Source of the DNA: Nitrospirota bacterium | GTDB taxonomy: Bacteria; Nitrospirota; Thermodesulfovibrionia; Thermodesulfovibrionales; UBA9159 | Reading direction: 5' to 3' | Length of the DNA stretch: 64,000 nucleotides | NCBI GenBank assembly: GCA_021790195.1 | Contig: JAJYIF010000014.1 | Location: forward strand, 1-64,000 | Part shown: positions 6,043 through 47,203 of the stretch, piece by piece | Position numbering within the stretch: position 1 is the stretch's first letter | How the letters are laid out: each line of letters opens with the position of its first letter | Made by a program: the position numbers and the translations under genes | The notes under the pieces: generated by a model | Seen by the model: the letters and a program-made list of their open reading frames with translations, nothing else | Told to the model about the DNA's origin: nothing | Database searches by the model: none

Positions 6043-8019
6043 TTGATGACGAAGCACAGAGTGATTTTCCAGCCCTCAGGCAGGCGCGGAGAGGTTGAGG
6101 AAGGCAAGACACTGCTGGAGGCGGCCCAGTCCCTCGGGGTTGATATAGAGGGCCTCTGCGGCAGCAAAAAGGTCTGCGGCAAGTGCAAGGTAAGGATCGA
6201 GGAGGGATATTTTGAAAAGGACAATATCGAATCCGGGATGTCCCATCTTTCCCCTATCACGGAGGCAGAAAAAAAACATATAAAACCCGAAGACGGTCCG
6301 GGAATGCGTCTCGCCTGCACTGCGGAGATTTACGGGGACCTCAAGGTCTTTGTGCCGGAGCGTTCGCGGGCCGGGAAACAGGTGATCCGCAAGGCGGCGA
6401 AGGAGCTTTCCATAGCCATCGATCCCGCGGTGAAGAAATACAACATCGATCTCGTCCCACCGACCCTTCACGACATGGCCACCGGCGATTACGAGCGTGT
6501 TCTGAGATTCCTGGAGGAGGACTACGGAATCAAAGGCCTCACCTTCGACTATGCGGCACTGAAAGGGCTTCAGGACGCCTTGAGGCAGGGAGATTGGAAG
6601 GCGACCGTTACGGTCTGGATGGACAGGGAGATAATAAAGGTCGAGCCAGGTTTTGTGGAGACCTGTTACGGTCTTGCTGTAGACATCGGGACTACAACGT
6701 GCGTGGGATATCTCACTGATCTGAATACCGGGAAGGTGGTCAACACCGAATCTATGATGAACCCCCAGGTGCCTTACGGGGAGGATGTTATGTCCCGCAT
6801 AACCTATGCGATGTCGAACCCTGCGGGACTCGAAACCATGCAGAAGGCCATTATCGAGGGACTCAACGAGATCATTGAGAGGGTGGTTTCGGAGATAAAA
6901 AAGGACGGGCCGAACCCCGGTCACGCGGTGGACGACATGACGATCGTCTTCAATACTGCGATGCACCACATATTCCTCGGTCTCAACCCCGTTTATATAG
7001 GGCGTTCTCCTTTTATACCGGCCGTGCAGAATTCCATGAATATAAAGGCCCGGGACCTCGGTATAAAAATCAACCCTTCCTCTTACATCCATGTGCTGCC
7101 AATCGAGGCCGGTTTTGTGGGTGCAGACAACGTCGGGGTCCTTATAGCCGAAGAGCCATACAACCAGGACGAGATGGTGTTGATAATTGATATAGGCACT
7201 AACGGCGAACTGCTTCTCGGCAATCGCAACAAGGTTTGCTCGACCTCCTGCGCCACCGGCCCTGCCTTCGAAGGGGCGCAGATCAAGTTCGGAATGAGGG
7301 CCGCGCCCGGGGCGATAGAGAAGGTGCAGATTGATCCGCTAACGAAAGAGCCTTTGTACAAAGTCATCGGAAAGGCAGACTGGCATACGCACCTGGAGAA
7401 AGTGAATGCCAAAGGGATCTGCGGCTCAGGCATCATCGAGATTGTCGCGGAGATGTTCAAGGCCGGGATAATAGACAAGACGGGAAGGTTCGTTGTGGAC
7501 CTCGACACACCGAGAGTGAGAAGAGATTCTGAGGGAAAGCCGGAGTATGTCCTGGCCTGGGCGGAAGAGACCTCTATCGGAACGGACATCACAATCACCC
7601 AGGGGGATGTCAGGGCGCTTCAGCTCGCGAAGGGCGCGCTTTATACCGGAGCAAAGCTTCTCATGAAGAGACTGGATGTCGCGAAGCTCGACCGCGTTGT
7701 CCTTGCCGGGGCCTTCGGCAGCCACATAGACAGGGAGGCCTCTCTCACCCTGGGCATGTTCCCTGACTGTCCCATGGACAAGGTTTATGCGGTCGGAAAC
7801 GCGGCCGGGGACGGAGCTAGAATGGCCCTTCTCAATAAAGGGAAGAGGAGTGAGGCGAACGAAAGGGCGAGATGGGTGGAATTTGTCGAGATCGCGACCG
7901 ATCCGACGTTCGAGAAAGAATTCATGCAGGCCATGCATATCCCTCACATGAAGGACAAGTTTCCGAACCTCAAGGCGTTCCTCGAAAAATCGGGAAGCAA
8001 GGTCGAGATAAAAGGATAG
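6043..8019 (+). CDS. Corrinoid protein activator (RACE-type ferredoxin-ASKHA ATPase)
   Basis: A 658-residue reductive activator of corrinoid enzymes (RamA/AcsV/MtoD-like function). The N-terminal 2Fe-2S ferredoxin domain has CGSKKVCGKCKVRI and a later LACTAE. A linker domain with VPPTLHDMATGDYERVL follows, and then the ASKHA ATPase core: AVDIGTTTCVGYL, IIDIGTNGELLLG, the ICGSGIIEIVAEM block and LAGAFGSHID. These proteins use ATP to return inactive Co(II) to Co(I). The start is set by AGGAGG 8 nt upstream, and a structured leader precedes the gene. It very likely serves the corrinoid protein encoded at 4490-5182. Confidence 0.93.
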   Translation: MMTKHRVIFQPSGRRGEVEEGKTLLEAAQSLGVDIEGLCGSKKVCGKCKVRIEEGYFEKDNIESGMSHLSPITEAEKKHIKPEDGPGMRLACTAEIYGDLKVFVPERSRAGKQVIRKAAKELSIAIDPAVKKYNIDLVPPTLHDMATGDYERVLRFLEEDYGIKGLTFDYAALKGLQDALRQGDWKATVTVWMDREIIKVEPGFVETCYGLAVDIGTTTCVGYLTDLNTGKVVNTESMMNPQVPYGEDVMSRITYAMSNPAGLETMQKAIIEGLNEIIERVVSEIKKDGPNPGHAVDDMTIVFNTAMHHIFLGLNPVYIGRSPFIPAVQNSMNIKARDLGIKINPSSYIHVLPIEAGFVGADNVGVLIAEEPYNQDEMVLIIDIGTNGELLLGNRNKVCSTSCATGPAFEGAQIKFGMRAAPGAIEKVQIDPLTKEPLYKVIGKADWHTHLEKVNAKGICGSGIIEIVAEMFKAGIIDKTGRFVVDLDTPRVRRDSEGKPEYVLAWAEETSIGTDITITQGDVRALQLAKGALYTGAKLLMKRLDVAKLDRVVLAGAFGSHIDREASLTLGMFPDCPMDKVYAVGNAAGDGARMALLNKGKRSEANERARWVEFVEIATDPTFEKEFMQAMHIPHMKDKFPNLKAFLEKSGSKVEIKG

Positions 8020-35409: not shown

Positions 35410-35437
35410 TGGTGCGAGAGAGGGAAGTCGAACCCCT
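35410..35437 (-). pseudogene. tRNA-Leu 3' fragment (T arm, acceptor, CCA)
   Basis: In the minus sense this reads AGGGG TTCGACT TCCCT then CTCTCGC ACCA: a five-pair T stem with loop, an acceptor strand and an encoded CCA. The acceptor CTCTCGC is the exact complement of GCGAGAG, the 5' end of the tRNA-Leu fragment at 46068-46106. No D arm or anticodon arm precedes it. It is the detached 3' half of that gene. Confidence 0.8.
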
Positions 35438-35567
35438 ATTAGGGTACAAAAAGTTAGCGCGCGCCCTACTGACTGTATTAATTCAATGCAACATGGAACC
35501 CCATATTTTCGCCATTTATCTCGACTGATGGGACTAATTCTATAAATATGCATCCAGTTGCAAATTA

Positions 35568-35652
35568 TGGTGCAGGCACCGAGACTCGAACTCGGACGGG
35601 TTACCCCACCAGATCCTAAGTCTGGCGCGTATGCCAATTCCGCCATGCCTGC
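35568..35652 (-). tRNA. tRNA-Leu (anticodon UAG), island-borne
   Basis: An intact 85-nt class II tRNA with encoded CCA. The acceptor GCAGGCA pairs with TGCCTGC, the anticodon stem CCAGA / TCTGG closes the loop CTTAGGA (anticodon TAG), a variable arm with GTGGGG/ CCCGT follows, and the T arm has GTTCGAGTC. It lies inside the island, next to the 3' remnant of the split gene that reads the same codon. Confidence 0.95.
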
Positions 35653-36178
35653 ATAGAAAATATTAGTATATCGATTATATCTGATGCATGTGGGCCCTAG
35701 CAATGGCGACGGCCAAATAGAGAGGTCTCTCGAAGGCTGTTACCGCCGGTTAAAGAAGGACCTACCCACCTACGCAAAAGTAACCCATTTGCCGGTTTTA
35801 AATGGTCTGAGAATAACAGGGAAGAAGTACCTACCCCGAACCGGCCCAAAAGTTTCCATAGCTGGTCTGTTTCAGTTTGCTCGTTCTCGATAAGTTTTGC
35901 TTACGAGAGTGGAGAGTCCCTTTGGAACGCGACGAAGATGCCGAATTATATGTTGGGCAAGTCGGTAGGGATAAAATCCTCACAGTACACCATATCGGTT
36001 GCAATCTTCCGAAATAAAGTAGTACGGGAAGAATTGTGTCGGCCTTCATGACACCGAGGGTGTGCTCCTTCAAATAGGCTGGGAAAGCTTGGACTTACCC
36101 AGGCGTAAAATACTAGTTGAAACCTTTAGACGAGCTCAGGAAATGCAGACCCCAGCGATCAGTTGTAATCTTGGGCTT
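35653..36178. other. Gap without recognisable gene
   Basis: About 525 nt between the tRNA and the recombinase. Short overlapping frames on both strands look like decayed coding sequence, but I recognise no family and see no ribosome binding site. It is probably degraded island DNA. Confidence 0.4.
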
Positions 36179-36781
36179 CTATTTTCCGTGCAGAATATCC
36201 ATCCACCTGATTGCCTCAGTGTCACTGATCTTGCCCAAGTAGATCTGAGTCGTTTTCAGATCCTGATGTCTCAGGATAACCTTGGAGATGATCTCCAATG
36301 GAACCCCATTTCTGCTGGCATAGGTCGCTGAATGCCGGCGTAGATCATGCGGAGATATCTTTACATTCAGCTTCTGACCCAATCCGGTGACCAGGTTTCT
36401 CACTGCTGTGTAGCATAGTGGAAATACCCTGTCTTCAGACTGCATCTGTTTTGTCTGAATATACTCGGTCAGTCTGGCCGCAATGTGTCCAGGCATAAAG
36501 GCGACTTCGGCATCTCGTCCTGACTTGGGCTCTTGGATCACCAGCTTTCTGCCGGTAACGTCTGCTGCCCGTAGATTGAGAACCTCCCCGATTCTCAGTC
36601 CACAGCGCGCCTGAAGCTCCAGTATCAGCCGATCCCTGACACTTCGTGAGTTAAAGATTATTTCGTCAAGCCAGGCAAATATTGATGGGACAGGCGGCGT
36701 GAGCTTGGGTAATCTTGCTGGTACGCTAAGCACACCAGCCTTTATTGCAATAACGGGAAGCCCCACAGCAGTGCCTACCAT
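36179..36781 (-). pseudogene. Truncated tyrosine recombinase / integrase
   Basis: The catalytic domain is complete: Arg in CGLRIGEVLNL, Lys in KSGRDAEV, HxxR in SPHDLRRHSATY, His in LRHQDLKTT and the nucleophile Tyr in IYLGK. The N-terminal core-binding (SAM-like) domain is missing: only a hinge-like LPKLTPPVPS precedes the catalytic domain. The first 20 or so codons overlap an IPTL-CTERM relic on the other strand, so the true break is probably near 36720-36770. The product, if made, could not bind att sites normally. It is the likely remnant of the enzyme that mobilised the island. Confidence 0.82.
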
Positions 36782-36863
36782 GAACGAATGGGGGATGATG
36801 GTCTTCGTCCTCTTTGCCGGAATTGCCTCGATCTATTATCTGAAAAGACGGAAGGCAGTTTAA
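36771..36863 (+). pseudogene. IPTL-CTERM sorting-signal fragment
   Basis: The frame from 36771 reads VPTMNEWGMMVF, a hydrophobic stretch and YYLKRRKAV before a stop. This is the C-terminal sorting tail of IPTL-CTERM proteins and matches the tail of the intact gene at 44378-45490 (VPTMTEWGMIIF...YYLKRRK). The rest of the gene is lost at the junction with the recombinase. The open frame continues some way upstream, with a Gly-rich sequence that may belong to it. Confidence 0.75.
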
Positions 36864-37084
36864 CTATAGAGAGGTTGTGATTAGGTAATGAAGGGCGAGA
36901 GAAGTTAACTCGTTCTTTCTTGTTTCAGTTTCTTCGCTAAGCGGTTCAAGGTTGTGTAATCTCTTCTTCGCTTCCCCGTGATAATGACAGATTGAGAAGT
37001 TCAATACCAAACTTTGGTAGATATCAGTCTTCCTGACTATAAATTTTCAAAAGAAACATCGAGATGTTGCAAGAAGACCCCAAT

Positions 37085-37102
37085 GTTGAGTTACAGGAAG
37101 AA
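37085..37102 (-). repeat. Cassette-boundary repeat copy (minus sense)
   Basis: In the minus sense TTCTTCCTGTAACTCAAC, 16 nt after the stop of the zinc-ribbon gene. AGTT before the core and AACT after it can pair. Confidence 0.55.
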
Positions 37103-37117
37103 AAACTGATTCGGAAG

Positions 37118-37606
37118 TTAATAATTATCGATGCCACCATCTTGAAGCATATCTTTTAATATTGTTGTTGCTGTTTCGACATCCTTTCTTGCAACGTCTA
37201 TCTTTATTGTGCCAATCACTGGATTAAATTCTCCAAGCAAACCTGCGGCAAATAGGTTTTGAAGGTTTTCGCCTCTTGCATAATAGTGAATATGCTCGCG
37301 TTCAAATATTGACTTTATTACAGATAATTCACCAAGATTCGTCGTTTCATAAACTGTTACTATTTCGATAAATTCGGCAGGCTCGTCGGAAATCCCTTCT
37401 TCCGACTTTTCATTTTCTTCTTTTTGAAAAAAATCGAGGTCAACTAAACATTCTTCACAATAGCTTTCTTCAAATGAATACGTCTTCTTACATGAAGGGC
37501 ATCTCGGCGGCACTTCTTCATATTTTACAAGTGCTACTTTACAATCGCTGCAACGTCCTTCAGATTCAAAATATTCTGTTCTGCAACGTGGACAATATTT
37601 CAGCAT
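37118..37606 (-). CDS. Zinc-ribbon protein with DUF2007-like domain
   Basis: About 162 residues. Two zinc ribbons at the N-terminus are formed by CPRC/CSDC and CPSC/CEEC. An acidic linker follows, then a C-terminal domain (IVTVYETTNLGELSVIKSIF, LLGEFNPVIGTIKIDVARKD) that matches the DUF2007 'putative signal transducing protein' family. I start at ATG 37606 (MLKYCPRC); an upstream GTG at 37636 is possible. AT-rich codon use sets it apart from the flanks. It is bounded by two copies of the cassette repeat in the same orientation. Confidence 0.75.
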   Translation of the reverse strand: MLKYCPRCRTEYFESEGRCSDCKVALVKYEEVPPRCPSCKKTYSFEESYCEECLVDLDFFQKEENEKSEEGISDEPAEFIEIVTVYETTNLGELSVIKSIFEREHIHYYARGENLQNLFAAGLLGEFNPVIGTIKIDVARKDVETATTILKDMLQDGGIDNY

Positions 37607-37688
37607 CTTGTTTGGTCTTCTTTGTCTTCTTCGCACTCGATATTACTAAAAATACTCCTTACTCGAAATCAGTATAGCACAGGCGTGT

Positions 37689-37706
37689 TCTACAGGAAGA
37701 CATAGA
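37689..37706 (-). repeat. Cassette-boundary repeat copy (minus sense)
   Basis: In the minus sense TCTATGTCTTCCTGTAGA: a TCTA/TAGA stem around the core GTCTTCCTG. A TATACT -10-like box follows within about 20 nt and then the zinc-ribbon gene, so repeat, promoter and ORF come in order. Confidence 0.5.
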
Positions 37707-37920
37707 GAGGTCAAGAAAGGTTCCAGATTTGGGCACGTCCCTTGCAAAGTTCTCCTTAAAACGTGACGGGAGGAACTTCTGGGTGAAAGCCCATTCTTTA
37801 GGTGTCTCCCTCATAGCGAAGCCGTGTTATACTCTTCAAGACTGGCAGTTAGAGCGAATATATGTGCATCTGGCATATCCATAATAGAAGAGTCTGCGAA
37901 ATTGGCGGTATACAACACGG

Positions 37921-38244
37921 GTGAATATGAATCGTTGGGGCATCCCTCATTGGCTCGAAGAAGAAGTAAAGAAGCGCGATACAGCTTGTATCTACTGTGG
38001 TGTCCAAATGACCGAGCAGATGCCGCTAAATGGCCATAGGAGATCTGTGGCAACTTGGGAGCACATCATCAATGATGCAAGGATTATCAATCGTGAGAAT
38101 ATTGCCCGTTGCTGCGCCGCTTGTAATTCCAGTAAAGGGACCAAGAAGCTTTCCGATTGGATTCAGTCGAAATACTGTAAGAAGCATGGAATCAGCAAAG
38201 ACACCGTTGCAGACATTGTGAAAAATGCGCTGAAGACAGCGTAA
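37921..38244 (+). CDS. HNH endonuclease
   Basis: A 107-residue HNH-family nuclease. Zinc-binding pairs CIYCG and CAACNSSKG frame the active-site ATWEHI and the Asn-rich segment NRENIARCC. GTG 37921 or ATG 37927 may start the gene. No terminase or phage gene is nearby, so a restriction-type, homing or DNA-repair role is possible. It is part of the island. Confidence 0.85.
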   Translation: MNMNRWGIPHWLEEEVKKRDTACIYCGVQMTEQMPLNGHRRSVATWEHIINDARIINRENIARCCAACNSSKGTKKLSDWIQSKYCKKHGISKDTVADIVKNALKTA

Positions 38245-38406
38245 GAATAGGGAGGCAACAATGTGGGATGAGGGGTACTTTCTTGGCGGCAAGTTTCCTC
38301 CTTGAGACACTCGCCTGTAGTGTACGGAGCAACAATCAAGATTAGAAGATGTAATCTTTTCTTCGGTGATTATTTTAGCCAAGTGAAGCTAAACAGAGGT
38401 GAGACC

Positions 38407-39837
38407 TTGAAACTGGACAAACCTAGCTGCAAAAGCCGGCATTCTTCCTCTATCCTCCTCGGCATAGTTTTGCTTCTCTCCACCTGGTGTCTTGCTTCCT
38501 GCGCCCCCGTCCTTGACCAGCATTACTATGACCTGAAATCCAATCCTGATGAAGCATTAAGCTACCTGAACCGCCGGCTTTCTTCTGATCCGTTTTTCAC
38601 TGACGCCTATCTGGAGCGTGGTTATCTTTATTTCAACGCACGCAGATACCGTGAAGCAGCCGCCGATTTTGAACGAGTTGCATCTGCAAAATCCGATTGC
38701 CGGCGTTGCGTGATCTCGATGAACACCATGATTGGCTCCTGTCTTTTGGAATTGGGTGAAACCGAAAAAGCACGGTTGCACTTCGAAGCTGTCCGCAAGC
38801 TGAATCCAGAAGAAGCCGCAGGCGTAGCAGGGTTGGGTTTGGTTGCACTAAAGGAGGGCAAAGCAGCGGAGGCCGTAGAAGCTTTCAACGAAGCGATCCG
38901 GCTTGACCCGAAAGAGTCGTCCTATTATGGGAACCGGGGATTGGCCTACGCAATGACCCATAATAACAAGAAGGCGCTTGCGGACTACAACCGCGCTCTG
39001 GAGATGAATCCCCGGTTTGCTCGGTGTTACGCAAACAGAGGTTCCCTGTTTTTGGATGAGGGACGGGTAATCGAGGCCGAGAAGGACTTTTCCCGTGCGG
39101 TGGAACTTGATAAGATGTCGGCCGAATACTGGAATGATCGTGGGTATGCCCGTCATCTGCACGGTCGGTTTGAGGAGGCGCTTGCGGATTACAACCATGC
39201 GCTGGAACTGGCACCCAGGATGCCGCGGGCACTTGGGAACCGCGCCTTGTTGTATCTCCAGACCGGCAGACCAAAGGATGCAGCGCGGGAATACGAGCAG
39301 GTCAACATACTCGTACCCATGGATCCCATAAATCATTTCAATCGCGGAGTAGCTCTTCTTGCCACCGAAGAATACCAAGCCGCTATCGAGGAAATGAACC
39401 GGGCAGAAGAGCTCGGGGTACATCTGCCAGATTTGTACTACAACCGTGGCATGGCACTGTATTACGTAGGGCGTGCCCAGGAGGCGGTGGCCGAACTTGA
39501 TCGGGCGCTAGTCCTGAAGCCGAATTGGCCGGAAGCATACGCCGAGCGGGGTACCGCCTATATTTTGGTCTGCGAGCCGACCAAAGCAGTTAAAGACTTC
39601 CGCAAGGCAATCGCCTTGGCTCCGGAGCGCACCGCAAACTATTATTTTCTGGCAATTTCGCTTGAGTGCGCGGGCCGGACTGAGGATGCGGCACGGGCAT
39701 ACGAAAGCTACGCAGGCATGACAATTCCTCCAGGAGATGTCTCTTACGTAGAGGACGCGCGGCGCTCCGCGGAGAAACTGCGTAATCACGGTGCGACGGA
39801 GGGCCTTCCCTGTCTCACCTGTAAGGGAACTAATTAA
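38407..39837 (+). CDS. TPR lipoprotein
   Basis: About 476 residues. A signal peptide with lipobox CLASCAP is followed by roughly eleven tetratricopeptide repeats of the type YYGNRGLAYAMTHNNKKAL and YWNDRGYARHLHGRFEEAL. I place the start at TTG 38407, after AGAGGTGAG; the frame extends upstream without a start signal. It is probably an outer-membrane-anchored protein-interaction scaffold. A cassette repeat lies about 90 nt downstream. Confidence 0.85.
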   Translation: MKLDKPSCKSRHSSSILLGIVLLLSTWCLASCAPVLDQHYYDLKSNPDEALSYLNRRLSSDPFFTDAYLERGYLYFNARRYREAAADFERVASAKSDCRRCVISMNTMIGSCLLELGETEKARLHFEAVRKLNPEEAAGVAGLGLVALKEGKAAEAVEAFNEAIRLDPKESSYYGNRGLAYAMTHNNKKALADYNRALEMNPRFARCYANRGSLFLDEGRVIEAEKDFSRAVELDKMSAEYWNDRGYARHLHGRFEEALADYNHALELAPRMPRALGNRALLYLQTGRPKDAAREYEQVNILVPMDPINHFNRGVALLATEEYQAAIEEMNRAEELGVHLPDLYYNRGMALYYVGRAQEAVAELDRALVLKPNWPEAYAERGTAYILVCEPTKAVKDFRKAIALAPERTANYYFLAISLECAGRTEDAARAYESYAGMTIPPGDVSYVEDARRSAEKLRNHGATEGLPCLTCKGTN

Positions 39838-39929
39838 AGAAGGGCTTCCCTCAAAGGGCGGGGAATTGAAAAGATTACCATTGAGACCTGGTAATGTCAT
39901 CATTTTTGGATATGAGATTCTTGAAGCAG

Positions 39930-39947
39930 CGCTTCTTCCTGTATCCG
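39930..39947 (+). repeat. Cassette-boundary repeat copy
   Basis: GCTTCTTCCTGTATCCGA, with GGATA upstream pairing to TATCC and GAAGC to GCTTC, so the copy can form a hairpin of about 30 nt. A TATAAT with extended TG follows near 39965. Confidence 0.55.
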
Positions 39948-40007
39948 ACGCGTTTGAAGTCTGATATAATGGGTCAGAGTACAAACAGCAATGGAGAGGG
40001 GGAATAA

Positions 40008-40208
40008 GTGGAATTCATTTTGGCGCTTGTTGGGCTAGGTATAGCAATTTGGGCGATATCATCCTTGTTCTCACCGCCTAGAAAGCGTAAAGACTTTGCT
40101 CTGCATGATCGGGATGAAGCAACGAGCAGAGCATTAGGGGGAAGCGCACCACCTGATCTATCCGAGATAGAGCCTACCGTGAAAGAGCAAAAAAGGAAGA
40201 AGGCTTAG
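40008..40208 (+). CDS. Small membrane protein
   Basis: A 66-residue protein with one N-terminal membrane helix (FILALVGLGIAIWAISSLF) and a charged C-terminal part rich in Lys. GTG start after GGAGAGGGGG. No homology is recognised. It is unit 1 of the cassette-like series. Confidence 0.6.
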   Translation: MEFILALVGLGIAIWAISSLFSPPRKRKDFALHDRDEATSRALGGSAPPDLSEIEPTVKEQKRKKA

Positions 40209-40214
40209 GACGAC

Positions 40215-40233
40215 GTTCCTTCCTGAACTCAAC
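40215..40233 (+). repeat. Cassette-boundary repeat copy
   Basis: GTTCCTTCCTGAACTCAAC, 7 nt after a stop codon. CGTT just before the core and AACG just after can pair. Confidence 0.58.
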
Positions 40234-40235
40234 GC

Positions 40236-40264
40236 TTGACCGCGTAGCCTTCAAGGTGTATAGT
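40236..40264 (+). promoter_or_regulatory. Promoter of small membrane gene
   Basis: TTGACC and TATAGT with a 17-nt spacer, directly after the cassette repeat. The downstream gene starts at 40297 with GGGAGGGAGG before it. Confidence 0.7.
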
Positions 40265-40296
40265 TCAAACAATAATTTTGTCGTTGGGGAGGGAGG

Positions 40297-40563
40297 TTGG
40301 CAAGAATTCTGTCATTAATTGTCGCAGGTGGGTATTTGGTTGCTGCATATCTTTCTTCTGGTTCAGACGTTCTTTTTAAAATTACATTATTCCTATTTCT
40401 CGGTATTGCCTGTATTTGGTTTGGCGATCCACTGGGTAAGATCACAGGATTCATATGGATTGGGAATATCAATGTCAGCCAAGAAACACCGGGCAGCATC
40501 ATTAAAGTTCTTGGGTGGATTGTGCTTTTGTTGGTACCCGCCATCATCTTAGTGTATCAATGA
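40297..40563 (+). CDS. Small integral membrane protein
   Basis: An 88-residue protein with about three membrane helices: SLIVAGGYLVAAYLS, FKITLFLFLGIACIWFG and a C-terminal VLGWIVLLLVPAIILVY. The TTG start follows GGGAGGGAGG. No family is recognised. It is unit 2 of the cassette-like series. Confidence 0.65.
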   Translation: MARILSLIVAGGYLVAAYLSSGSDVLFKITLFLFLGIACIWFGDPLGKITGFIWIGNINVSQETPGSIIKVLGWIVLLLVPAIILVYQ

Positions 40564-40566
40564 GGC

Positions 40567-40581
40567 CTGCTTCCTGAACTC
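40567..40581 (+). repeat. Cassette-boundary repeat copy
   Basis: CTGCTTCCTGAACTC, 4 nt after a stop. TCAATG before and CATTGA after can pair. Confidence 0.55.
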
Positions 40582-40586
40582 TTGCA

Positions 40587-40615
40587 TTGACTTGTCAGAC
40601 CCGCCGCTGTATACT
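40587..40615 (+). promoter_or_regulatory. Promoter of lipoprotein gene
   Basis: TTGACT and TATACT with a 17-nt spacer, just after the repeat. This promoter shows that the next CDS starts at 40655 and not at the upstream in-frame codons. Confidence 0.72.
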
Positions 40616-40654
40616 TCAATCGGAGATTGTCATAATCCAAGGGGGAAATCTTTC

Positions 40655-41524
40655 GTGAAGCGCACTTCTTTATTGGGGAAGATTCATTTCTTGCTTTGGG
40701 TAATAATATTGCTTTCTTCCTGTGCACCCACTAACACGTATGTTTATACAGGGCCGTCTTTCGAACAACGTATTTCTGAAGTCAAAAAAATAGCGGTTAT
40801 TGATGATGCATGTATACTTATCCTACCTTTCGGTAAAGATGCGGATTATGTCTCTATAGCGGATACAGTGTCAACAGAATCCTTTATATTGGATAGCACC
40901 AGAACTTATTTGGAGCAGAAGGGATATCAGGTCAGTACGCTGCTCTCTCCGTTTGTGTGCGGATTTGTGACGCCTAATGAATCATTTAAGGCAGCTCAAC
41001 GAAGAGATGCAGAAAAATCAGACCGATTTGCGCCGCTTTATATTTCCGATTCCGTATATAACAATAAGGAGTATAAACAGGCCTTGCTTAAGGTAATTAG
41101 GCAGATACGCCCGATATTTGGTCAGTTAATGCAAAAAGACATGACTGCGCAGACAACAGTGCTGCCGAAAATCAGTTTTGTGAAAAGACAAGTTATTTTT
41201 GACGAGGAGATGCTGAAGAGTTTCAAAGTTATTTCTGCTGCAACCAATTCCGAAATAGCCCTTTTTATAATAGGACATGGTGGGATTGTCTCCACTGGCA
41301 AGACAGTAGCCGTTGGACTTGCTTCAACAATTCTTTCTTTTGGAATGCTTTCTGTATGGCCAGTATCTGCCCTTGACACATGGGCTATGCTTGTTGATTT
41401 GAAAGACGGTGAAATCCTCTGGTCAAACTGTTTAAGGGTACAGATGAATCCCTCAAACCGTGATGCTTATGCGAAAGTGTGGCCATCGAGTATTTTGTAT
41501 CATCTTCCATCCAGAAGTAATTGA
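40655..41524 (+). CDS. Island lipoprotein of unknown function
   Basis: About 289 residues. The signal peptide FLLWVIILLSSCAPTN ends in a lipobox. The mature part includes IAVIDDACILILPFG, a possible strand-rich beta fold, and near the C-terminus a Gly-rich hydrophobic segment (TVAVGLASTILSFGML) before LDTWAMLVDLKDGEILW. The end is like that of lipoproteins that report a stored parameter, but I know no family. GTG start after AAGGGGG. It is unit 3 of the cassette-like series. Confidence 0.65.
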   Translation: MKRTSLLGKIHFLLWVIILLSSCAPTNTYVYTGPSFEQRISEVKKIAVIDDACILILPFGKDADYVSIADTVSTESFILDSTRTYLEQKGYQVSTLLSPFVCGFVTPNESFKAAQRRDAEKSDRFAPLYISDSVYNNKEYKQALLKVIRQIRPIFGQLMQKDMTAQTTVLPKISFVKRQVIFDEEMLKSFKVISAATNSEIALFIIGHGGIVSTGKTVAVGLASTILSFGMLSVWPVSALDTWAMLVDLKDGEILWSNCLRVQMNPSNRDAYAKVWPSSILYHLPSRSN

Positions 41525-41541
41525 CTTGATTCCTATATCAG

Positions 41542-41560
41542 CCTTCTTCCTGAAAGCGAC
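41542..41560 (+). repeat. Cassette-boundary repeat copy
   Basis: CCTTCTTCCTGAAAGCGAC, 17 nt after a stop; TCAG before and CTGA can pair. A TATAAT lies at 41576-41581. Confidence 0.5.
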
Positions 41561-41611
41561 TCTATTACTTCGCGATATAATTGTGATGCGTATGGCGGGT
41601 AATTAACAGTC

Positions 41612-41755
41612 ATGAAGAAAGCAAAAGAGACAAAACGAGGGGGTCATTTTGAAAGGGAAGCGAAGGTCATGTGGTTAATCTGGATTCTCCCGATTCTCTT
41701 GGGATTCTTCGCTACGCTCGTCGCCCCCTTCATATTCAATATATTCAAGAAATGA
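41612..41755 (+). CDS. Tiny membrane protein (47 residues)
   Basis: Starts MKKAKETKRGGHFEREAK and continues with one membrane helix (VMWLIWILPILLGFFATLV) before APFIFNIFKK. It lies between a TATAAT box at 41576-41581 and a cassette repeat 5 nt after its stop, which is the same layout as the units upstream. There is no strong ribosome binding site. It is too short for most gene finders. Confidence 0.55.
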   Translation: MKKAKETKRGGHFEREAKVMWLIWILPILLGFFATLVAPFIFNIFKK

Positions 41756-41760
41756 GTTAT

Positions 41761-41779
41761 AGCTTCTTCCTGTAACTGA
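41761..41779 (+). repeat. Cassette-boundary repeat copy
   Basis: AGCTTCTTCCTGTAACTGA, 5 nt after a stop; AGTTA before and TAACT after form a perfect 5-bp stem. Confidence 0.58.
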
Positions 41780-42039
41780 GATAGAAGGCAGCGCTTAGAA
41801 GGGCGATAGATTCTAACGAAAATCATCATTGATGCATTGTGCTTGCCAGTGCAACGTGTCGGGAATCACTCTTCGGAAACATCCTGGCCGGGCTGGAGTG
41901 ATATATATCTGGCTGCATCGGTCGCAACACAATTTTCTCTTTCCTTTACAACTCAGTTTTGTTATATTCCTTAAAGGGGTGGCTGGTAGATCTTTGCTTG
42001 ATGATTCCAAGAAACAATCAAGAAATGAAGTGAGGGGGA

Positions 42040-43917
42040 ATGCCTATTATGAAAGCAAACAAGACTCAAAGTGCGTTCAGTGTCTTTCTTATTTCCCTAT
42101 TACTGATTTTCACTACGAACTGCGGAGGCGGAGGGGGAGGAGATTCCTCTGGCAGCACTACACCCCCGCAGTCTCAGCCAGCTGTTCCGTCGGCACCGCA
42201 AGGGGTAACGGCAACCGCCGGGAATGGACAAGTGACGGTAAGCTGGAACCAAGTCGCTGGTGCAACCTCCTACAACATTTACTGGTCAAGGACTGGCGGG
42301 GTGACGAAGAATACAGGAACGAAAATATCTGCTATGACAAGTCCGTATTTGCATGCTCCCCTTGACAACAATACGACATACTATTACGTGGTTACAGCGG
42401 TCAGTATTTCAGGGGAAAGCGCTGATTCACCACAGGTATCGGCAACTCCCTCTGCTCCTGTAAACAAGGTGACGACAGCCTTGTTCGTCGGACCAGACAG
42501 TGCATTAAAGGGTGCCACAGTCACGTTTGATGCATCTGCATCCAGTAGTCCCAACGGCGCCATAGCATCTTATTCCTTTGACTTTGGTGAGAGCGGTCCT
42601 AGCGTTACACAAACCTCTCCCGTATTTACACATACGTATGCAATATCGGGAACTTATTCGGTTACTTTAAGTGTGACAGATACCAGCGGAACAACTGTTT
42701 CAACAAGCAAGGAAATTACCATTGGAATGGTCCTTTCTCAGCCCGTCAATGTATCAAATACCGCGGGATGGTCTCAGGGCCAGAGTTTTGCCATTGATGG
42801 ACAGGGCGCAATAAATGTCGCTTGGCAGGAAGATGGAGGGGACATTCTATTTTCTCGTTCAGTGGATGGAGGAAAGACGTTTTCTGCTCCAAAAGCAGTA
42901 ATGACTCGACTTAGTAATTATAACTCTGATCAGATTAGATTAGTGAATACTAATAGCGGCACCATACTGATCTCATGGACATTGTTTGACACGGTTTCTG
43001 GAGGCGCTGAAGTCCTATTTTCCAGCTCTTCGGATGGCGGCAGCACTTTTTCTTCCCCGGTCATAGTATCAACCGTTGATAATGTAAATTCTTATACGCC
43101 TTCAATTGCAACAGATGGCAACAACAGAATAGGAATCGTCTGGGATGATGCCAATCTTAATTTCGAAAATACTAAGGCTGTCGAAGGTATCTTTTATGGC
43201 CGATCTGATGACAATGGTTCCACCTTTTTTCAACCAAAGATTATCCTGAGGCAGGACGGGACTCCTTCCACTTCTGGCACAAGTTGTCCCGACATAGCGA
43301 TATCTTCCCAAAACATATATGTTACCTGGCCTATGGGACCATCTGAGGGAGATATATATTTTTCGAGATCTACCGATGGCGGAACGACATTCTCTGCACC
43401 TATAGACATTCCCAATTATCCCGCAAAATCCTGGTGTCCACATATGGGTCTAGATTCTGCGGGCAATATCTATGTTGTTTGGGACGAAGGATCTGCCTTG
43501 ACAAAAAATAGATATATTCTTTTCTCACAGTCCACCGATAAAGGTTTATCTTTCAGCAGGTATCGATATCTGTCGACTCTGTTCCCAGATTCTTTCTGTT
43601 CCAATATTGCGGTCAGTGATGCAGGAACAATATTTGTTACATGGTCGACTGGCGATTTCAACAACAATACGCATAAATCCTTCCTCGTTTATTCATCAGA
43701 CAGTGGTAAGACCTTTTCCGCTCCGCTCAAAATCCCGGTTATCACCGGTCAGGATGCTTGCCCCAGCATTGCTGCAAAGGGTTTAAATCAGATTAGCTTT
43801 GTGTGGAGCGGGCCATTTAAACTACCTGTTATCCCCTCCCAAAGCTCGCCTGTTCCGAATGCAACGCTTGATAAGCCTGACATATTTTATAGCAGTGGCA
43901 TAGTGTCAATTCCTTAA
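42040..43917 (+). CDS. Lipoprotein with FN3, PKD and Asp-box repeats
   Basis: A 625-residue exported protein. The signal peptide ends in the lipobox FTTNCGGGGGG. A fibronectin type III domain follows (about 50-140: PQGVTATAGNGQVTVSWN), then a PKD domain (about 145-232: SYSFDFGESGP...FTHTY..SGTYSVTLSVTD), and then six or seven sialidase-type Asp-box repeats with the pattern SxDGGxTFSxP (for example SVDGGKTFSAP, SSDGGSTFSSP, STDGGTTFSAP), which predict a beta-propeller. There is no catalytic sialidase site in view, so it is likely an adhesive or polymer-binding surface protein. Confidence 0.82.
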   Translation: MPIMKANKTQSAFSVFLISLLLIFTTNCGGGGGGDSSGSTTPPQSQPAVPSAPQGVTATAGNGQVTVSWNQVAGATSYNIYWSRTGGVTKNTGTKISAMTSPYLHAPLDNNTTYYYVVTAVSISGESADSPQVSATPSAPVNKVTTALFVGPDSALKGATVTFDASASSSPNGAIASYSFDFGESGPSVTQTSPVFTHTYAISGTYSVTLSVTDTSGTTVSTSKEITIGMVLSQPVNVSNTAGWSQGQSFAIDGQGAINVAWQEDGGDILFSRSVDGGKTFSAPKAVMTRLSNYNSDQIRLVNTNSGTILISWTLFDTVSGGAEVLFSSSSDGGSTFSSPVIVSTVDNVNSYTPSIATDGNNRIGIVWDDANLNFENTKAVEGIFYGRSDDNGSTFFQPKIILRQDGTPSTSGTSCPDIAISSQNIYVTWPMGPSEGDIYFSRSTDGGTTFSAPIDIPNYPAKSWCPHMGLDSAGNIYVVWDEGSALTKNRYILFSQSTDKGLSFSRYRYLSTLFPDSFCSNIAVSDAGTIFVTWSTGDFNNNTHKSFLVYSSDSGKTFSAPLKIPVITGQDACPSIAAKGLNQISFVWSGPFKLPVIPSQSSPVPNATLDKPDIFYSSGIVSIP

Positions 43918-43935
43918 TAGCAGAGCCGATATATG

Positions 43936-44121
43936 TCAGTAAAGTCTAAACGATCTCATATATAATGCAACATATATATTTGCGCTCATACTCCCTACAA
44001 TAAACTGGGATGCTTGAAGTTCTTCAGCTTCTGAAAGCGACATTTGATTCACAAGACGCCAGACTTTCTCCCGTACCATGCTCAAAAAAAATCGGTCAGC
44101 AACGACAGATAGAAGTTTCAT
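43936..44121 (-). CDS. Possible small protein (61 residues)
   Basis: MKLLSVVADRFFLSMVREKV... with ORF-like composition (LVNQMSLSEAEELQASQF). AGGAAG lies 4 nt before the ATG, within a cassette-repeat copy read in reverse. No family is recognised. It may be a relic. Confidence 0.3.
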   Translation of the reverse strand: MKLLSVVADRFFLSMVREKVWRLVNQMSLSEAEELQASQFIVGSMSANIYVALYMRSFRLY

Positions 44122-44122
44122 T

Positions 44123-44137
44123 TTCTTCCTGAAGTCG
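44123..44137 (+). repeat. Cassette-boundary repeat copy
   Basis: TTCTTCCTGAAGTCG, with GTTTC before and GAAAC after as possible arms. It is not at the 3' end of an obvious gene. Confidence 0.4.
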
Positions 44138-44377
44138 AAACCTATTTCGATTTCTCGAATCTATTTCTTTCCATTTATACTCTCCACAACGCATAGTCGA
44201 AGCTGCAGTTTGGTCCTACAATTCTAAAGCCATATCTGAGGCTCTATCATTCAATATCGACATTGCAAGGAAGGCCCCCAGAAATAGGAATTCTCTCGAA
44301 AAATTCGGTGATTATTTACTTGACTTTTCTTTTATGAGTGTATAATTATCTTTAGCAAGCGAAAAGGAGGAGGGCAA

Positions 44378-45490
44378 ATGAAGCTTAAAATCTTAGTCTT
44401 AGCATTCCTTTTGTTAATTGTTTTGTCATATCCTGTCTATGCGCAGACATGGACAAACGTCTCCCCTTCATGGGATCCTACTAACGGTTACGTTTATAGC
44501 ATGGCGGTTTACGGGGGCAACCTCTATGTGGGAACGTATAACGGAGGGCCAGCGCAGGTGTGGCAGTATAACGGGACAACATGGTCAAACGTCTCCCCTT
44601 CATGGGCTGCTGCTAACGCTGGCGTTTATAGCATGGCGGTTTACGGTGGCAACCTCTATGTCGGAACGTATAACACCGGAGGGGCGGCGCAGGTGTGGCA
44701 GTATGACGGGACAACATGGTCAAACGTCTCCACTTCATGGGCTGCTACTAACAATGCCGCTGAAAGCATGGCGGTTTACGGTGGCAACCTCTATGTCGGA
44801 ACGTATAACGGCGGAGCGGCGGCGCAGGTGTGGCAGTATGACGGGACAACATGGTCAAACGTCTCCCCTTCATGGGCTGCTGCTAACACAGATGCTTTAA
44901 GCATGGCGGATTACGGGGGCAATCTTTATGTCGGAACGATTAACACCGGAGGAGCGCAGGTGTGGCAGTATGACGGGACGATATGGTCAAACGTCTCCCC
45001 TTCATGGGCTGCTGCTAACGATTACGCTAGTAGCATGACGGTTTACGGAAGCAACCTTTATGTCGGAACGGATAACGGCGGAGGAGCGCAGGTGTGGCAG
45101 TATGACGGGACAACATGGTCAAACGTCTCCCCTCCATTGGCTGCTCCTTACTATGCCGCTTATAGTATGGCGGTTTACGGTGGCAATCTTTACGCGGGAA
45201 TATATAACGGCGGAGGAGCGGCGCAGGTATGGCAGTATAACGGGACGACATGGACAAACGTCTCCCCTTCATGGACTGCTGATAACTTTGCCGTTTATAG
45301 CATGGCGGCTTACGGGAGCAATCTTTATGTCGGAACGAGTAACAGCGGCTTCGCGGCGGCGGAGGTGTGGCAGTTGTATGTTGGTGTAAGTGTCCCTACC
45401 ATGACTGAATGGGGGATGATAATTTTCATGATCTTGGCAGGCCTTGGGTCGGTATACTATCTCAAGAGACGGAAACAATTGGAAAGCTAA
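44378..45490 (+). CDS. IPTL-CTERM surface protein with seven propeller repeats
   Basis: A 370-residue exported protein. After the signal peptide (MKLKILVLAFLLLIVLS) come seven repeats of about 44 residues, each of the type TWSNVSPSWAAAN, SMAVYGGNLYVGTYN, AQVWQYDGT. Seven such units predict a seven-bladed beta-propeller. The C-terminus is an IPTL-CTERM sorting signal (VPTMTEWGMIIFMIL, then a hydrophobic stretch and YYLKRRK), which in other bacteria is processed by a dedicated exosortase-like enzyme (XrtH); none is in this window. GGAGGAGGG precedes the ATG. The repeats are nearly identical at DNA level. Confidence 0.88.
   Translation: MKLKILVLAFLLLIVLSYPVYAQTWTNVSPSWDPTNGYVYSMAVYGGNLYVGTYNGGPAQVWQYNGTTWSNVSPSWAAANAGVYSMAVYGGNLYVGTYNTGGAAQVWQYDGTTWSNVSTSWAATNNAAESMAVYGGNLYVGTYNGGAAAQVWQYDGTTWSNVSPSWAAANTDALSMADYGGNLYVGTINTGGAQVWQYDGTIWSNVSPSWAAANDYASSMTVYGSNLYVGTDNGGGAQVWQYDGTTWSNVSPPLAAPYYAAYSMAVYGGNLYAGIYNGGGAAQVWQYNGTTWTNVSPSWTADNFAVYSMAAYGSNLYVGTSNSGFAAAEVWQLYVGVSVPTMTEWGMIIFMILAGLGSVYYLKRRKQLES
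44429..45372 (+). repeat. Tandem coding repeats of about 130 bp
   Basis: Seven units share long identical DNA blocks such as TGGTCAAACGTCTCCCCTTC and GTGTGGCAGTATGACGGGAC. Such identity suggests recent duplication or homogenisation. Confidence 0.85.
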
Positions 45491-45504
45491 GATAGCTTAT
45501 GAGA

Positions 45505-45545
45505 ACAAGACAGGGGCGAGAATGTCATTTTATCCCCTGTCTTGT
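45505..45545 (+). terminator. Strong hairpin after the IPTL-CTERM gene
   Basis: ACAAGACAGGGG and CCCCTGTCTTGT form a perfect 12-bp stem with a 17-nt loop, 15 nt after the stop. There is no clear T-run, so it may be a stability hairpin as well as a terminator. Confidence 0.6.
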
Positions 45546-45586
45546 ACGAAGCGTTTTATCCCGATCGTATTCTTCATAAAGTTGCT

Positions 45587-45603
45587 GCTTCTTGAAACTC
45601 AAC
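45587..45603 (+). repeat. Cassette-boundary repeat copy
   Basis: GCTTCTTGAAACTCAAC, lacking the CC of the core; AGTT before and AACT after can pair. It lies about 100 nt after the IPTL-CTERM gene. Confidence 0.45.
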
Positions 45604-46067
45604 AGTTGTCGGTGGAGCCCGGAGCGTGAGGCTTCCTTATTCACATATCTGCTCCGGTGAATGCTTCTGGACAAAACTTTCTTTTCCGAAGAAGAGGTTC
45701 TTTGACGTTTAATGTCCGGAGAAACCAACACCGCCGACCATCGCGCTGAAAGCTCGTGCCGATTATTGGCATGGATCTTCATTTCTGCGGAGGCAAGCGT
45801 GTTACGGGACAAAGTCTGCGTCAGTTGCGGAACCGGCTACCTATTTGTTCTCAGGTGCTAGAGACTTTTACGGACAGAGGCTTGACTTTGGATTTCTGTA
45901 AGGTAGATTACTTTCTAAACAGTAGCAAAATTGTAGCAGAAAATATCCGAATGCACAGAAATTAGGAAAAATATGTAAATTTTGCAACTAAACTTTTCTC
46001 TGACGTTTCAATCAGTTAGGCTCGAATCCAGACCAGAAGCCCGTTTGCGAAAATGGCTCCGGAGCGG

Positions 46068-46106
46068 TCCTAAGTCCAGCGCGTCTGCCAGTTCCGCCAC
46101 TCTCGC
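46068..46106 (-). pseudogene. tRNA-Leu(UAG) 5' fragment
   Basis: In the minus sense GCGAGAG TG GCGG AACTGGCAGA CGC and the anticodon stem and loop start CTGGA CTTAGGA are intact. The sequence then departs (CCGCT, not the TCCAG needed to close the stem). The fragment is 39 nt and includes the UAG anticodon. Its acceptor strand matches the 3' fragment at 35410-35437. Confidence 0.85.
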
Positions 46107-46511: not shown

Positions 46512-46540
46512 TTGCATCAGAGTGCGTTTTGTGCTACGAT
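46512..46540 (+). promoter_or_regulatory. Promoter touching the PilZ gene start
   Basis: TTGCAT and TACGAT with a 17-nt spacer; only 6 nt separate the -10 box from ATG 46547. No ribosome binding site fits. The mRNA should be leaderless. Confidence 0.5.
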
Positions 46541-46546
46541 TTTCGC

Positions 46547-47203
46547 ATGGATGAGAGGCGGCATTACAAGAGATTCGTTGTAGAGGGCATAGAGGGGACC
46601 CTCATGTTTGCCACCGATGTAGAGATCCTGAACATAAGTATCAACGGCGTTGCCCTCAGAGCCAACAGAAGACTTGAGATAGGCAAGGAGTATACCTTAA
46701 AGCTTGATTTTAAGGACAAGAGCGTTTCCATGACCGGGATCGTTGTCTGGTCGGTCCTCAGCGAACTGCACACGGACCGGCATGTCGAGGGGGTCCCGAT
46801 GTACAAGGCCGGCATGAGATTCACCGACGTAATATCGAACAAGATGGCCAAGCTCCTGGATTTCATCGAGACTTATAAGCTCTCTGAAGATCACCGGCTC
46901 AATTTCAGGTTCGGTGTGGCATCCCCGGAAAAAGCGGTCCTCGGAGGACCGCACAATTATCACGTGAAAAAGATCAGCGCTAGCGGCATGCTCATAGAGA
47001 CAGACATGCCCCTCGAGGCCGAGGACAGGCTTCCCATGGAGTTTTTTCCGGAGGGCAACAGCGCTATAAAATTCATAGGAAGAGTTGCATCCTGCGTCGA
47101 GATCACCAATGCCGTGCCCAAACACTATGACATAGGCGTCGAGTTTATCGAGATGGGGGAGGACGACAGGAAACGCCTAAGAGAATTCATCGGGACCCTC
47201 TAA
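46547..47203 (+). CDS. Tandem PilZ-domain protein
   Basis: About 218 residues with two PilZ units. The first has the c-di-GMP motif DERRHYKRF (R-x3-R) and ILNISINGVAL (NxSxxG). The second is degenerate: EDHRLNFRFG and VKKISASGMLIE. Such proteins bind c-di-GMP and tune motility or polysaccharide systems. The start at ATG 46547 is set by the promoter and the PilZ N-terminus; an upstream in-frame ATG overlaps the promoter. It converges with the TPM gene. Confidence 0.85.
   Translation: MDERRHYKRFVVEGIEGTLMFATDVEILNISINGVALRANRRLEIGKEYTLKLDFKDKSVSMTGIVVWSVLSELHTDRHVEGVPMYKAGMRFTDVISNKMAKLLDFIETYKLSEDHRLNFRFGVASPEKAVLGGPHNYHVKKISASGMLIETDMPLEAEDRLPMEFFPEGNSAIKFIGRVASCVEITNAVPKHYDIGVEFIEMGEDDRKRLREFIGTL

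What the first reader, a model, noticed from the sequence alone, without database searches (positions are those of the whole stretch)
35410..46106. tRNA-Leu(UAG) gene split by an island that brings its own tRNA-Leu(UAG)
The 5' part (46068-46106) keeps acceptor GCGAGAG and ends exactly after the anticodon loop CTTAGGA. The 3' part (35410-35437) has the T arm and acceptor CTCTCGC with CCA. They are complementary. Normally integration rebuilds the tRNA gene; here neither junction does. An intact tRNA with the same anticodon but a different acceptor lies 130 nt inside the island. It looks like functional replacement of a host tRNA by an element-borne one.
Basis: partly seen in the sequence, partly recalled or inferred. 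Interest (0 to 1): 0.78.

Follow-up and report, generated by a model that had tools for sequence, protein, structure and literature searches.

The report
Host leucine tRNA replaced by immigrant
In this bacterium the gene for the transfer RNA that reads the CUA leucine codon lies in two dead pieces around a 10-kb block of foreign DNA, and a different, intact version inside that block appears to do its job, a swap that has happened several times in related bacteria at this same gene.

Summary
On the minus strand the window holds the first 39 nt of a tRNA-Leu(UAG) (46106-46068), a 10.4-kb island, an intact but different tRNA-Leu(UAG) (35652-35568), 130 nt, then the native T arm and acceptor (about 30 nt, 35439-35410). 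Relatives carry the native gene intact. No other UAG-reading tRNA-Leu was found in this 96%-complete assembly. The left junction matches, at 87% over 189 nt, the left end of a common kind of element that cuts this tRNA at the anticodon loop and normally rebuilds it at the other end (G006). Here the rebuilt copy is missing. The replacement tRNA plus its 130 nt and the native 3' end recurs in two other families (79-82% identity). The tRNA is conserved far beyond its flank, with a compensatory acceptor-stem change. A second immigrant tRNA-Leu(UAG) sits nested in the split native gene in other genera, some with intact congeners at the same site. Replacement of the host tRNA is therefore well supported. 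That one island did it in a single step is not: the junctions share no core, about 16 nt are missing, and the island's integrase is a truncated, unrelated fragment. New variant of a known kind.

The parts
46068..46106 (-). Native tRNA-Leu(UAG), 5' half (nt 1-39, ends after the anticodon loop)
   Evidence: 39/39 identical to the intact native gene of relatives; sequence
45919..46067 (-). Left end of a type-B (5'-fragment) integrative element, with an arm-like TGCTACAATTTTGCTACT motif at 45921-45938
   Evidence: With the 5' half, 86.8% identical over 189 nt to the left end of the G006 element; weaker matches in G132, G147, G039; motif
36179..36832 (-). Truncated tyrosine recombinase (catalytic domain only), unrelated to the type-A and type-B integrases
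   Evidence: PF00589 E 2.6e-19 with no N-terminal domain; 21-27% identity to either clade and no relative among the loci
35568..35652 (-). Replacement tRNA-Leu(UAG), intact, acceptor GCAGGCA/TGCCTGC, CCA encoded
   Evidence: ARAGORN, Rfam 56.9 bits; 84/85 and 82/85 identical to G161 and G102
35438..35567 (-). 130-nt segment between the replacement tRNA and the native 3' part, shared with G161 and G102
   Evidence: Alignment A1; no native-like sequence in it
35410..35439 (-). Native tRNA-Leu(UAG), 3' part (T arm, acceptor, CCA)
   Evidence: Profile match to model positions 96-125 of 125
37118..45490 (.). Island cargo: zinc-ribbon/DUF2007 protein, weak NinG/HNH-like protein, TPR protein, PKD/BNR-repeat protein, beta-propeller-like repeat protein, unknowns
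   Evidence: ORFs, Pfam
46529..47203 (+). Left host flank: PilZ protein, next to the intact native tRNA in G001
   Evidence: 70% identity in G001 locus L095
33472..35308 (+). Right host flank: FabF-like and DsrE-like genes; a FabF/RodZ pair also lies near this tRNA in family f10
   Evidence: tblastn matches in L068, L076, L177; order and orientation differ

Best explanation
The tRNA-Leu(UAG) gene of this Nitrospirota lineage is an integration hot spot. One kind of tyrosine-integrase element (called type B here) recombines at the anticodon loop, strands the host 5' half at its left end, and normally rebuilds the gene at its right end with an element-supplied 5' half. The window's left junction is such an end (shown). 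An immigrant tRNA-Leu(UAG), with about 130 nt of its own downstream DNA, arrived at the same gene on mobile or recombining DNA (the cassette is shown; its carrier is inferred). With a second tRNA of the same anticodon present, the native or rebuilt copy became dispensable and was lost by deletion or decay (inferred). That left the 5' half, the T arm plus acceptor, and a broken integrase. The immigrant is now the only UAG-reading tRNA-Leu found in the assembly (shown) and is under selection as a working tRNA (shown indirectly, by conservation and a compensatory change). So this is in-situ replacement of a host tRNA gene by a foreign isoacceptor at an integration hot spot, most likely in more than one step.
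For: Native gene intact in relatives, with the window's left-flank genes beside it in G001. Assembly has Leu UAA, GAG, CAA, CAG and a single UAG, the one in the island. Left end 87% identical to the G006 element, which rebuilds the gene. Cassette of foreign tRNA + 130 nt + native 3' end in G161 and G102, two other families. In G102 it sits where congeners G104 and G103 have the intact gene (74% over 1852 nt, 72% over 1010 nt). The tRNA differs at 1-4 of 85 sites against 30-34 of 125-128 in the flank (p 6e-7 to 2e-5), with a compensatory acceptor pair in G102. A different foreign tRNA-Leu(UAG) is nested in the split native gene in g20 and in G428, with intact relatives G030 and G391 at the same sites.
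Against: The genome is a 54-contig draft at 96.3%, and drafts rated 100% complete in this order (G013, G041, G080) hold other Leu isoacceptors but lack UAG in the assembly, so an unassembled intact native copy cannot be excluded. The carrier of the cassette was not found in viral contigs, phages or plasmids. No intermediate with both tRNAs intact was seen. The direction of transfer between G002/G073-like genes and the cassette is not established.
Confidence: 0.72

Rival explanations
1. One element did it in one step: it carried a complete tRNA-Leu(UAG) near its attachment site, integrated into the native gene, did not rebuild it, and supplied the replacement.
For: The foreign tRNA lies inside the island and between the native pieces. 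The cassette has moved between families. G102 also shows a type-B left end with a 5' half, on another contig.
Against: Conservative recombination leaves a shared core, but the left junction is at nt 39 and the right one in the T arm, with about 16 nt missing. G006 has the left end without the cassette; G161 has the cassette without a 5' half in the 11 kb beyond it. The integrase is a truncated, unrelated fragment. Replacement also occurs with no island.
Confidence: 0.18
2. Assembly gap or duplicate: an intact native tRNA-Leu(UAG) exists in an unassembled part of the genome, so the window holds only relics plus an extra tRNA, and nothing was replaced.
For: This gene is missing from several drafts rated 100% complete.
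Against: Both native pieces and the island are on one contig, and the left flank is that of the native locus. Parallel in-situ replacements occur in other genera. Conservation of the replacement tRNA argues that it is needed.
Confidence: 0.09
3. The two pieces are a working split tRNA joined after transcription.
For: Acceptor strands pair 7/7 and the 5' half ends at the anticodon loop, a place where archaeal tRNAs can be split (general knowledge).
Against: About 16 nt (3' strand of the anticodon stem and the variable arm) are in neither piece. A complete tRNA with the same anticodon is present. Trans-spliced split tRNAs are not known in bacteria (general knowledge).
Confidence: 0.01

Closest known systems
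tRNA-targeted genomic islands (Islander catalogue, PMC4383910), minority class leaving a 5' tRNA fragment
   Same: Tyrosine-integrase element in a tRNA gene, anticodon-loop site, displaced tRNA fragment; the G006 element fits fully
   Different: By that catalogue's principle the island restores the target gene. Here no restored copy exists and another complete tRNA with the same anticodon stands in its place
tRNA-Thr(GGU) disruption in Caldiarchaeum (Sugahara et al. 2012, PMC3293823)
   Same: A 5' tRNA fragment, a recombinase-bearing insertion and a complete tRNA in one locus, explained by element integration
   Different: There the complete gene is the rebuilt native tRNA with an added intron, in an archaeon; here it is a foreign isoacceptor with another acceptor stem
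Tycheposons (cited in PMC10872708 and PMC11389934)
   Same: Integrative elements with a tyrosine recombinase and a complete tRNA gene at a border
   Different: The defining paper was not in the library; the window's recombinase is broken and unrelated to the site, and no tycheposon marker genes were tested
Xenologous gene displacement (general concept)
   Same: A foreign gene with the same function takes over and the resident is lost
   Different: It happens inside the resident gene's own split remains, and repeatedly at one tRNA locus

Membership tests
tRNA-targeted integrative island (Islander definition) | A displaced fragment of the target tRNA marks one end | tested here: met
   5' half at 46106-46068 and 3' part at 35439-35410
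tRNA-targeted integrative island (Islander definition) | The target tRNA is restored at the other end | tested here: not met
   No intact GCGAGAG-type tRNA in window or assembly
tRNA-targeted integrative island (Islander definition) | Integrase gene in the island | tested here: inconclusive
   Only a truncated recombinase without N-terminal domain, unrelated to integrases known at this site
Type-B (5'-fragment, anticodon-loop) element family of this order | Conserved left end next to the displaced 5' half | tested here: met
   86.8% over 189 nt to G006
Type-B (5'-fragment, anticodon-loop) element family of this order | Type-B integrase directly upstream of the rebuilt tRNA | tested here: not met
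   No type-B integrase match in the window
Functional tRNA-Leu(UAG) (replacement gene) | Type II tRNA fold, UAG anticodon, A73, CCA, selection on the sequence | tested here: met
   expression and charging not testable here
Tycheposon | Intact tyrosine recombinase and characteristic gene set next to a complete tRNA | not tested
   Recombinase truncated; defining gene set not available in the library
Split (trans-spliced) tRNA | The two pieces together hold the whole tRNA | tested here: not met
   About 16 nt missing

The most novel reading that the evidence does not exclude
Some integrative elements of Nitrospirota carry a complete spare tRNA-Leu(UAG). It frees them from having to rebuild their target, so they can enter hosts whose tRNA does not match their own half, and they drive repeated turnover of a tRNA gene that the host needs.
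Probability: 0.25. Interest if true: 0.75.

Novelty: new variant of a known kind. Interest (0 to 1): 0.56.

Why it matters
tRNA genes are thought to be safe targets because integration restores them. Here one tRNA locus has been overwritten by a foreign isoacceptor in at least two separate series, across several families and two orders. That gives a concrete case of element-linked replacement of translation machinery, and a testable model of how tRNA genes turn over. It may also explain why this gene is missing from many draft genomes of the group.

Tried and rejected
(a) My own idea that the 130 nt hold a decayed rebuilt native tRNA: an early pairwise alignment looked suggestive, but a profile of 53 native loci finds nothing there beyond the 3' end, and ordinary windows of the 64 kb score as well. 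Dropped. (b) Split functional tRNA: rejected, bases missing. (c) Phage or plasmid origin of the replacement tRNA: only remote tRNA-Leu matches; no exact cassette in viral contigs. (d) A donor elsewhere in the phylum sample: the closest genes are G002 (98%) and G073 (91%) in the same order, direction of transfer undetermined. (e) Empty site for G161 against congener G162: flanks did not match, so not used.

Full report
What is there. Reading the minus strand, the window has GCGAGAG...CTTAGGA (46106-46068), then 10.4 kb of foreign-looking DNA, an intact tRNA-Leu(UAG) with acceptor GCAGGCA/TGCCTGC (35652-35568), 130 nt, and a T arm plus acceptor CTCTCGC with CCA (to 35410). The two outer pieces pair 7/7 in the acceptor. 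They are parts of one gene: in many of the 176 genomes of the order that were searched the same tRNA is intact, GCGAGAG...CTTAGGATCCAG...CTCTCGCACCA. About 16 nt of it (3' strand of the anticodon stem and the variable arm) are in neither piece. Named holders of the same cassette are Nitrospirota MAGs; the order is probably Thermodesulfovibrionales, which is my inference.

Is the host gene really gone? The assembly is 96.3% complete. It has Leu tRNAs UAA, GAG, CAA and CAG, and one UAG, the one in the island. The best match to the native gene is the 39-nt half. Caution is needed: drafts of this order rated 100% complete (G013, G041, G080) hold other Leu isoacceptors but lack UAG in the assembly, so this gene is prone to be lost from assemblies. 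Here, however, both fragments and the island lie on one contig. The left flank (PilZ and TPM-type genes) is the neighbourhood of the intact native gene in G001 of the same family.

What the left end is. In G006 of the same family the locus reads: displaced 5' half, 6.1-kb element with a 336-aa tyrosine integrase, complete tRNA-Leu(UAG). G039 shows the same order of a displaced 5' half and a rebuilt gene. So the element brings a 5' half and rebuilds the gene at its right end. The window's left end is 86.8% identical to G006's over 189 nt including the junction. A second integrase clade (type A) uses the same anticodon site but leaves a 3' fragment instead. The anomaly is at the right end.

What the right end is. 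From about 40 nt upstream of the replacement tRNA to the native 3' end, the window matches G161 (82% over 282 nt) and G102 (79% over 258 nt), from two other families. Beyond it the flanks differ. In G102 this cassette sits where congeners G104 and G103 have the intact native gene (74% over 1852 nt; 72% over 1010 nt). G102 also has a decayed native 5' half with a type-B left end on another contig. The 130 nt contain nothing native-like. The window's recombinase (36179-36832, -) is a truncated catalytic domain unrelated to either integrase clade.

Is the replacement tRNA working? It scores as a normal tRNA. Between the three hosts it differs at 1, 3 or 4 of 85 positions, while the adjacent 125-128 columns differ at 30-34 (Fisher p 6e-7 to 2e-5). 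Two of the three differences between the window and G102 are a compensatory change of one acceptor pair, C-G to U-A. This is what selection on a needed tRNA would give. It does not show expression.

It has happened elsewhere. In genus g20 (G019, G150, G152, G153) a different tRNA-Leu(UAG), GGGCGTG type, is nested between the native promoter plus 5' part and the native 3' part, with no island between. G030 of the same genus has the native gene intact with the same 3' flank. In G428, of another order in the class, a GGGCGTG-type tRNA is nested between about 18 native nt on each side, while congener G391 has the native gene intact at that site (75.6% over 1215 nt). The constant feature is a foreign tRNA-Leu(UAG) inside the split native gene. 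The large island is not constant.

How it probably works. Shown: hot spot, type-B left end, shared cassette with an intact conserved tRNA, loss of the native gene from the assembly, recurrence. Inferred: the cassette came in on mobile or recombining DNA; once a second UAG tRNA was present, the rebuilt native copy and the element's right end were lost; the remaining pieces are relics. A single integration by an element carrying its own tRNA is simpler, but does not fit junctions without a common core, the missing 16 nt, and the left end and the cassette being found apart.

Place among known things. Islander describes islands whose tRNA target is restored, 3760 with 3' and 159 with 5' fragments (PMC4383910). 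The window departs from that rule. The nearest reported case read here is the archaeal tRNA-Thr disruption: a 5' fragment, a recombinase and a complete tRNA (PMC3293823). Tycheposons also have a tRNA at a border, but their definition could not be tested. I did not find a report of repeated replacement of one tRNA by foreign isoacceptors nested in its own remains, within an open-access library and six searches; subscription papers were not searched.

Noticed in passing
G013, G041, G080 (loci L261-L278): Drafts rated 100% complete hold other Leu isoacceptors but no tRNA-Leu(UAG) in the assembly. The hot-spot gene probably breaks assemblies, so its absence from drafts of this order should not be read as loss.
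   Followed up: partly
L066, L067, L068 (type A) and L061, L093, L077 (type B): Two integrase clades (about 27% identical) use the same anticodon loop of the same tRNA but with opposite outcomes: one leaves a 3' fragment, the other a 5' fragment.
   Followed up: partly
L195 (G162) 6200-6570 (-); L249 (G335) just upstream of the tRNA: A displaced tRNA-Leu(UAG) 5' fragment, a 77-aa ORF that looks by eye like a GIY-YIG nuclease domain, then the intact tRNA about 300 nt on. Perhaps a minimal element at the same site.
   Followed up: no
window 44378-45490 (+) and 36700-36863 (+): Two ORFs end in a similar sorting-like C-terminal tail (VPTMTEWGM...YYLKRRK). The second overlaps the truncated recombinase on the other strand, perhaps a recombination scar.
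   Followed up: no
L147, L148, L060, L200 (genus g20), just upstream of the nested tRNA: The native 5' part carries a 16-nt hairpin insertion in the D loop (TCTACGACTCGTAGAG) and a changed anticodon arm, yet is nearly identical in four species with different outer flanks. Why a dead piece stays so conserved is unexplained.
   Followed up: no
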